A stretch of DNA of 64,000 nt, taken from positions 1,600,711-1,664,710 of the forward strand of contig NZ_HE997626.1 in NCBI RefSeq assembly GCF_000312385.1, written 5' to 3'. Below the pieces are notes generated by a model. The model saw nothing but the letters and a program-made list of their open reading frames with translations, was not told the origin of the DNA and searched no databases. Source of the stretch: Tsukamurella sp. 1534 (GTDB lineage: Bacteria; Actinomycetota; Actinomycetes; Mycobacteriales; Mycobacteriaceae). The position numbers and the translations under genes were made by a program. Positions 50,243 to 50,687 of this stretch are shown piece after piece (positions within the stretch are counted from its first letter, which is position 1; each line of letters starts with the position of its first letter).

Positions 50243-50302
50243 ACCGCACCGCGGTGCCCGGCGGAAGGACCCCGGACATGCGCAACGGCGATCCGGCCTG
50301 AG

Positions 50303-50608
50303 CTGAGGCATGTGCACCGCATGGTGCTGGTCCTCAGAACGGGTCCGAATCGCCGTTCGCTAGCACGGATCCCGGTTACCAAGCGTGCTTGGGTGGGCTG
50401 TGTGGACGGCCTCGGCGTTCACCTGCGGGAGGGTTCACTGTCCGCGAACCTGTGCTGACCACTGATTTCCCCGGTGACGCAGGCCCACAGCGCTTTCTGC
50501 CAATGCGGCGCGCTCCGCGTGGGTGCCTGGTGTCCGCGCTGGGAGCCTTGACGCTCAGGAACCCTCGACCTTCTCTTCCGGTGGGGGTTTGGCTTTGCGC
50601 CGCTCCGT
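50303..50608 (-). ncRNA. candidate Ms1/MTS2823-type RNA polymerase-binding small RNA
   Basis: In mycobacteria the abundant stationary-phase RNA Ms1 (MTS2823) is encoded between the homologues of these two flanking genes (Rv3661 and Rv3662c). Here the 445-bp gap between their convergent stops has no credible protein gene but does hold a promoter reading on the minus strand. A hairpin CTGAGG/CCTCAG with an inner GCACC/GGTGC stem (50303-50337) could form the 3' end about 300 bases downstream, close to the known ~300-base RNA. Sequence conservation itself could not be checked. Ends are approximate and the strand follows the promoter. Confidence 0.5.
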
Positions 50609-50614
50609 GATTCC

Positions 50615-50643
50615 TTTGTACCTTGTGACGGCGGTCACAGCAA
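50615..50643 (-). promoter_or_regulatory. promoter with a perfect CRP site in the convergent intergenic region
   Basis: Read on the minus strand: TTGCTG (50643-50638), a 17-base spacer, and TACAAA (50620-50615). The spacer contains TGTGA-N6-TCACA (50639-50624), an exact match to the CRP consensus, three bases from the -10 box. No protein gene starts downstream on that strand, which is why an RNA gene is proposed. Confidence 0.6.
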
Positions 50644-50687
50644 GGGGTAGCGCGGGAAATTTCGGTAACGGTTCCGCGGTCCGCTTG

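What the first reader, a model, noticed from the sequence alone, without database searches (positions are those of the whole stretch)
50243..50687. Probable Ms1/MTS2823-type small RNA with a CRP-controlled promoter
The gap between the Rv3662c-like and Rv3661-like genes, where mycobacteria encode the RNA polymerase-binding RNA Ms1, is 445 bp without a credible protein. It has a good minus-strand promoter whose 17-bp spacer contains an exact TGTGA-N6-TCACA site. A hairpin lies about 300 bases downstream. A CRP site between -35 and -10 would link the RNA's repression to cAMP.
Basis: partly seen in the sequence, partly recalled or inferred. Interest (0 to 1): 0.75.

Follow-up and report, generated by a model that had tools for sequence, protein, structure and literature searches.

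The report
Ms1 RNA with built-in CRP operator
A Tsukamurella-like bacterium carries the known RNA-polymerase-binding RNA Ms1, and its promoter overlaps a binding site for the regulator CRP that is conserved in many related genera but decayed in one group of mycobacteria, which suggests how this global regulator of transcription may be switched.

Summary
The 445-bp gap lies between a HAD-IB hydrolase gene and an Rv3662c-like gene. Its minus strand matches Rfam Ms1 (RF02566) over the whole model, with E = 3.3e-24 but 95 bits against a 162-bit gathering score. All 16 same-genus genomes searched match, all below that score. Sixteen Tsukamurella-type sequences support a 94-pair fold, with two-sided changes at 16 pairs.

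The exact TGTGA-N6-TCACA site is centred at -23.5. It overlaps the last two bases of the -35 hexamer, so it is not strictly inside the spacer. In 80 named loci, found without reference to the promoter, all keep CTTG at the -35 and 59 keep GTG-N8-CAC in exact register. Of the 20 without it, 16 are Mycobacterium loci with a decayed second half. One other clade keeps the promoter and lacks the site. All 35 genomes tested keep crp.

Best reading: Ms1, repressed by CRP. The RNA's identity is well supported, the operator strongly inferred, repression inferred from position; the cAMP step is weakest. Ms1 in Tsukamurella is already published; I found no report of the operator.

The parts
50304..50608 (-). 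Ms1 RNA gene (Rfam envelope 50336-50608, extended here to the end of the 3' hairpin)
   Evidence: RF02566, model 1-304, 95 bits, E 3.3e-24, gathering 162 not reached; 16 of 16 same-genus genomes match; covariation on 16 sequences
50608..50608 (-). assumed transcription start (+1, A)
   Evidence: first position of RF02566, six bases after the -10; not mapped in this organism
50638..50643 (-). -35 element TTGCTG
   Evidence: CTTG present in 80 of 80 named loci within -42 to -32 of the model start
50615..50620 (-). -10 element TACAAA
   Evidence: TA-N3-A/T at the expected place in 77 of 80 named loci, GTA in 73 of 80; not found by the E. coli-type scan
50624..50639 (-). CRP-type operator TGTGA-N6-TCACA, centre -23.5, overlapping the -35 by two bases
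   Evidence: exact; 11 exact copies in the genome against 1 for the control; conserved in register
50304..50336 (-). 3' hairpin TGAGG...CCTCA with inner GCACC/GGTGC; terminator candidate without a T tract
   Evidence: sequence; column pairs 288, 289, 290 and 292 of helix 14 keep pairing through changes on both sides in 5 of 16 genomes
50337..50358 (-). conserved hairpin GAACGG...CCGTTC before the last hairpin
   Evidence: invariant or nearly invariant columns in 16 sequences
50688..51551 (-). HAD-IB hydrolase (Rv3661-like), upstream flank of Ms1
   Evidence: PF12710, TIGR01490; found at 139 of 141 loci examined, of which 80 had been chosen by this protein
49499..50242 (+). Rv3662c-like gene, convergent flank
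29412..30086 (-). crp, the candidate regulator, about 20 kb from Ms1
   Evidence: PF00027 and PF13545; the only place in the genome matching both; best PDB matches 3i54 and 3d0s, named Crp/Fnr-family regulators there; that they are CRP of M. tuberculosis is recalled

Best explanation
This is the Ms1 RNA gene of a Tsukamurella-like genome. [quoted passage not shown] Its housekeeping-type promoter contains an operator for CRP centred at -23.5. CRP bound there would sit over the -35 edge and the spacer, exclude RNA polymerase and hold Ms1 down; loss of CRP occupancy on entry into slow growth would release it. Shown here: the RNA homologue, its structure by covariation, the operator sequence, its conservation in fixed register, and its loss in some clades while promoter and crp remain. 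Inferred: CRP binding, repression, the growth-phase signal, and RNA polymerase binding in this species.
For: Full-length RF02566 match, in 16 of 16 genus genomes and 260 of 301 family genomes. Structure: 97.3% of cells paired, 16 pairs with two-sided changes against 7.6 in shuffles and 2 to 5 in slid versions. Operator: GTG-N8-CAC in exact register in 59 of 80 named loci; in 127 of 165 pattern-selected promoters, against 0 to 1% of shuffled spacers by genus, typically 0.2%; 113 of 117 sites with at most two mismatches share one register. In 64 named loci the GTG and CAC columns carry 1.6-1.9 bits, the N6 columns 0.3-1.2, positions 5 to 20 bases upstream of CTTG 0.04-0.31. The composite promoter-operator pattern occurs in 23 of 394 class genomes, once each, with the HAD gene nearby in 23 of 23. 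Single place with both Crp domains in the genome. CRP bound near start sites goes with repression (abstract of PMC4117774; passage of PMC4218801).
Against: Score below Rfam's gathering threshold. The single-sequence fold is only weakly better than shuffles (z -1.53, 7 of 100 as good). No T tract after the hairpin. No E. coli-type promoter by scan. The outer bases of the palindrome are less conserved (0.9-1.4 bits). cAMP does not raise the DNA affinity of M. tuberculosis CRP (abstract of PMC8026907). Other control of Ms1 is published: elements out to -491 (passage of PMC8628891), LexA binding at the M. tuberculosis locus (section of PMC4191392), and Ms1 as the most affected gene in a stationary-phase depletion experiment of the CarD/CrsL paper (passage of PMC12709188). 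No expression or binding data for this organism.
Confidence: 0.66

Rival explanations
1. The palindrome is part of the core promoter, read by RNA polymerase or a sigma factor, and only resembles a CRP site.
For: It overlaps the -35, and its GTG and CAC columns are nearly as conserved as the hexamers.
Against: Sixteen named Mycobacterium loci keep CTTG and GTA with a decayed second half. In clade g28, 17 of 18 sampled genomes match CTTG...GTANAAA while 0 of 17 keep the palindrome. The dyad, the more variable N6 and the match to the known CRP consensus fit a dimeric protein better.
Confidence: 0.12
2. CRP does bind, but acts as an activator, or as a roadblock that matters only together with LexA, CarD or other factors.
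For: Ms1 promoter elements extend to -491 (passage of PMC8628891); LexA binds the M. tuberculosis locus (section of PMC4191392).
Against: A site over the spacer is a repressing position for CRP; the ahpC activating site is at -81.5 (passage of PMC4218801).
Confidence: 0.14
3. The RNA is only the 3' end of the HAD messenger, without its own promoter.
For: The HAD stop codon lies 80 bases upstream on the same strand.
Against: The -35/-10 pair is conserved in register at the RNA's first base, and characterised homologues have mapped 5' ends (passages of PMC4191392).
Confidence: 0.04

Closest known systems
Ms1 of Mycobacterium smegmatis / MTS2823 of M. tuberculosis / scr3559 of Streptomyces coelicolor
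   Same: Rfam model matched end to end, HAD gene as flank, interrupted rod-like fold, about 300 nt, start at ACGGA.
   Different: Score below the Rfam threshold, 3' end diverged and without a T tract, exact CRP palindrome in the promoter.
CRP (Rv3676) / GlxR regulon operators
   Same: TGTGA-N6-TCACA; the window's CRP is closest to the solved Crp/Fnr regulators 3i54 and 3d0s.
   Different: Control of an RNA-polymerase-binding RNA by such a site was not found in the papers searched.
6S RNA
   Same: Global RNA-polymerase-binding RNA by analogy.
   Different: No Rfam 6S match in the gap; the only match at E up to 10 was Ms1. Published Ms1 binds core, not holoenzyme.

Membership tests
Ms1 RNA (RF02566) | significant end-to-end match to the covariance model | tested here: met
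   positions 1-304, E 3.3e-24
Ms1 RNA (RF02566) | score at or above Rfam's gathering threshold | tested here: not met
   95 against 162 bits; 0 of 16 Tsukamurella-type genomes pass and 66 of 301 family genomes pass, though 260 match. A curator's reporting limit, not a biological trait
Ms1 RNA (RF02566) | synteny with a HAD-IB hydrolase gene and an Rv3662c-like gene | tested here: met
Ms1 RNA (RF02566) | 5' hairpin and long interrupted rod supported by covariation | tested here: met
   on 16 sequences of one genus; helices 5, 6 and 9 of the rod hardly vary, two-sided changes are mostly in helices 4, 10, 12 and 14
Ms1 RNA (RF02566) | intrinsic terminator about 300 nt downstream | tested here: inconclusive
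   hairpin at +273 to +305 with compensatory changes, no T tract
Ms1 RNA (RF02566) | binds RNA polymerase core; accumulates in stationary phase | not testable with these tools
   needs RNA pull-down and northern blot
CRP-repressed promoter | palindromic CRP consensus | tested here: met
   exact
CRP-repressed promoter | site over the core promoter, conserved in relatives | tested here: met
   centre -23.5; absent or decayed in some clades
CRP-repressed promoter | cognate CRP encoded in the genome | tested here: met
CRP-repressed promoter | binding in vitro or by ChIP; change in a crp mutant | not testable with these tools
   no data for this organism
6S RNA | match to a 6S covariance model | tested here: not met
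   no 6S match at E up to 10

The most novel reading that the evidence does not exclude
Ms1, the actinobacterial counterpart of 6S RNA, is wired to the cAMP/CRP network by an operator inside its core promoter. The wiring is older than the family, since the operator core in register also occurs in six named Pseudonocardiales-type loci and the composite signature in one genome of another family of the order. It has been lost at least twice, in one Mycobacterium group and in clade g28. If M. tuberculosis shares the loss of its relatives, this would explain why MTS2823 is already abundant in growing cells and rises only 6.5- to ten-fold, against about 130-fold for Ms1 in M. smegmatis.
Probability: 0.4. 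Interest if true: 0.75.

Novelty: new member of a known kind. Interest (0 to 1): 0.6.

Why it matters
What controls Ms1 was left open in its 2014 description, which says the sigma factor and possible regulators are unclear (PMC4191392, section read). A conserved operator for one named regulator, with natural losses that leave the promoter standing, makes it directly testable. It would connect a global brake on RNA polymerase to a second-messenger network, and it offers a sequence-based reason why Ms1 regulation may differ between groups of mycobacteria.

Tried and rejected
Chance match: rejected, since the site recurs in register in relatives. Core-promoter element: disfavoured, since CTTG and GTANAAA persist without it. 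6S RNA: no match. Loss of the operator because crp was lost: rejected for the genomes tested, as crp is present in 35 of 35, including 17 of clade g28, 4 of g10 and 9 Mycobacterium genomes with the decayed promoter type. Finding the M. tuberculosis genome by the IS6110 end repeat failed: 11 of 396 sampled genomes carried the repeat, none more than three times, so its own promoter was not read. M. smegmatis was only approached: G617 has four porin copies at 97-99% to MspA and a fifth at 87%, and its promoter keeps GTG-N8-CAC with two mismatches in the second half. The single-sequence fold energy was uninformative. cAMP across growth phases in M. smegmatis: the passages of PMC3871856 that I saw concern dormancy and gave no clean exponential-versus-stationary comparison.

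Full report
WHAT IS THERE. The window comes from a Tsukamurella-like genome: the nearest named relative of the HAD protein is T. asaccharolytica, 83% identity (records of the window's own genome may be left out there), and the genome is 4.5 Mb. Between the Rv3662c-like gene (49499-50242, +) and the HAD-IB hydrolase gene (50688-51551, -) lie 445 bases without a credible protein. A scan of 50150-50800 against all Rfam families at E up to 10 gave one match, Ms1 (RF02566), 50608-50336 minus, model 1-304, 95 bits, E 3.3e-24. This is below the gathering score of 162, so the default scan of the window did not list it. The threshold is high for this family: of 301 family genomes 260 match at E up to 0.001, but only 66 reach it, and of 16 genomes of this genus all match and none reaches it. 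The 14 control genomes gave no match.

STRUCTURE. I aligned 16 Tsukamurella-type sequences. The RNAalifold consensus has 94 pairs. Counting them, 97.3% of cells pair, 16 pairs have two-sided changes (shuffled mean 7.6; slid versions 2 to 5), and 45 cells have such changes (shuffled mean 13.8); further pair types are only slightly above the shuffles (36 against 33.6, 37 of 500 shuffles as high). The structure was derived from these sequences, so control (b) leans towards it, and helices 5, 6 and 9 of the rod hardly vary. Two-sided changes lie mostly in helices 4, 10, 12 and 14. Helix 14 contains the 3' hairpin, whose stem is exchanged for a different one in five genomes. Against: the single sequence folds only a little better than its shuffles (z -1.53; 7 of 100 at least as good), and no T tract follows the hairpin.

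PROMOTER AND OPERATOR. Taking the first Rfam position as +1 (50608), the -10 is TACAAA at -12 to -7, the -35 is TTGCTG at -35 to -30, and the spacer is 17. TGTGACCGCCGTCACA runs from -31 to -16, dyad centre -23.5, sharing two bases with the -35. An E. coli-type promoter scan finds nothing. The palindrome is the only exact one in the window and one of 11 in the genome; the same pattern read backwards occurs once.

CONSERVATION. Two sets were used. (a) Eighty named loci came from a scan with the HAD protein, the best 80 of 580, and the Ms1 body was placed by nhmmer. This set is not selected on the promoter. CTTG is present in 80 of 80, and a -10-like TA-N3-A/T in 77 of 80. GTG-N8-CAC is present in 60 of 80, 59 of them in exact register, and 62 of 80 have at most two mismatches to the full palindrome. 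All six Pseudonocardiales-type loci in the set keep the core in register. Of the 20 without the core, 16 are Mycobacterium loci with a second half changed to TCTAG or TCCAG (for example M. interjectum, M. triplex, M. scrofulaceum, M. asiaticum, M. colombiense, M. ostraviense). That these are slow growers, as M. tuberculosis is, is recalled, not tested. The other four are two Rhodococcus loci and one MAG with GCG for GTG, and Mycobacteroides franklinii with a changed second half. (b) A promoter pattern was run over 302 family genomes and matched 186. I tested 149 of the 150 rows that call listed, plus 16 genus loci. At most two mismatches: 117 of 165; GTG-N8-CAC: 127 of 165; shuffled spacers 0 to 1% by genus, typically 0.2%. 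This set is selected for CTTG and GTANAAA, so it cannot measure their loss; promoters with other -10 forms, and matches that one search did not list, are missing from it. Clade g28 stands out: the pattern is found in 17 of its 18 sampled genomes, the palindrome in 0 of 17. In g10, 0 of 14 have at most two mismatches, though 12 of 14 keep GTG-N8-CAC. Among 161 rows with the 19-base interval, both half-cores are kept in 122, neither in 22, and one only in 17.

In the 64 named loci outside the decayed Mycobacterium group, the GTG columns carry 1.88, 1.61 and 1.88 bits and the CAC columns 1.88, 1.77 and 1.88; the outer palindrome bases carry 0.92 to 1.39. The six middle columns range from 0.33 to 1.17. 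Positions 5 to 20 bases upstream of CTTG carry 0.04 to 0.31. These values are not corrected for relatedness. A strict composite pattern of promoter plus operator, run over 394 genomes of the class, was found in 23, once each. Twenty-two are in this family (36 sampled) and one is in another family of the order. All 23 have the HAD gene within the fetched stretch, 22 of 23 match an Ms1 profile by nhmmer, and the remaining one matches Rfam Ms1 at 36.6 bits.

THE REGULATOR. The genome has three cNMP-binding places. Only one coincides with a Crp-type helix-turn-helix match. It is crp at 29412-30086, about 20 kb from Ms1. Its best PDB relatives are 3i54 and 3d0s, which I recall to be CRP of M. tuberculosis, with an identical stretch GASRETVNKALADFAHRGW in the DNA-binding region. 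crp is present in all 35 genomes tested, including 17 of the operator-less clade and nine Mycobacterium genomes with the decayed promoter type. Comparing with the Ms1 or promoter places, crp lies on the Ms1 contig in 32 of 35, about 8.5 to 24 kb away; in the other three the two are on different draft contigs. This may be plain synteny.

MECHANISM. A CRP dimer centred at -23.5 covers the -35 edge and the spacer and should exclude RNA polymerase. In M. tuberculosis, for a subset of genes, CRP sites near the start go with repression and upstream sites with activation (abstract of PMC4117774). The same rule is stated for M. smegmatis, where the ahpC activating site is at -81.5 (passage of PMC4218801). 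So repression of Ms1 is the likeliest role. The signal is uncertain: by its abstract, PMC8026907 finds that cAMP does not raise the DNA affinity of M. tuberculosis CRP but reduces non-specific binding.

COMPARISON WITH PRINT. Ms1/MTS2823 relatives in Tsukamurella are already reported (passage of PMC3207917; section of PMC9130861). Its regulator is described as unclear, with LexA binding at the M. tuberculosis locus (section of PMC4191392); a later paper found Ms1 to be the most affected gene in a stationary-phase depletion experiment concerning CarD and CrsL (passage of PMC12709188). I found no report of a CRP site at Ms1. The searches were those; CRP has no occurrence in PMC4191392, PMC9130861, PMC11077062 and PMC8628891; in PMC3207917, PMC12709188, PMC8044303 and PMC5360333 the CRP passages shown concern other things; and in PMC11656743 and PMC11464796 the term cAMP, where shown, is part of an author's name. 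Other papers listed by those searches were seen as listings only. The main text of the M. tuberculosis CRP ChIP paper has no mention of MTS2823 or Rv3661 (its supplement was not seen), as expected if the operator is decayed there. The main promoter study of 2019 (Sikova et al.) is not held and was not read, and it may mention the site. Published induction is about 130-fold for M. smegmatis; for M. tuberculosis it is ten-fold in the text and 6748 to 43600 RPKM in the table of PMC3207917, given as 6.5-fold in PMC8628891. That is the direction expected if M. tuberculosis has lost the operator, but it rests on two species, I did not read the M. tuberculosis promoter, and the M. smegmatis assignment of G617 is inferred from porins.

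VERDICT. Ms1 here is a new member of a known family. The part worth attention is the conserved, clade-wise lost CRP operator in its core promoter.

Noticed in passing
L010:2210-2285, L021:2208-2283, L013:2174-2246, L006:2232-2305, L064:2279-2353, L079:2164-2238, L189:2412-2486; window 51400-51900: A 6C RNA (RF01066) lies just upstream of the HAD gene, divergent from it, in all seven loci tested from Mycobacterium, Rhodococcus, Nocardia, Williamsia and Pseudonocardiales-type genomes, but none is found in the window stretch or in the Tsukamurella loci L002, L003 and L112. It appears to be lost in Tsukamurella. The M. tuberculosis CRP ChIP paper lists a site upstream of ncRv13660c (passage), which I recall to be this RNA.
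   Followed up: partly
G000, loci L139-L149: Eleven exact TGTGA-N6-TCACA sites in the whole genome against one for the backwards control: a candidate core CRP regulon of Tsukamurella.
   Followed up: partly
clade g28, e.g. G196:C36:15902-15942: A clade keeps the Ms1 -35 and -10 (17 of 18 sampled genomes) but has an unrelated spacer starting CTTGCC, although crp is present in the 17 tested: a natural operator-less control.
   Followed up: partly
window 29412-30086 and 50304-50608: crp and Ms1 lie on one contig, about 8.5 to 24 kb apart, in 32 of 35 genomes examined (one search compared).
   Followed up: partly
L166 (G547:C2:1319259-1319299): The second Ms1 matches of two genomes are short hits to the terminator hairpin on the opposite strand; the two- and three-match genomes may be the same effect rather than extra Ms1 genes.
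   Followed up: no
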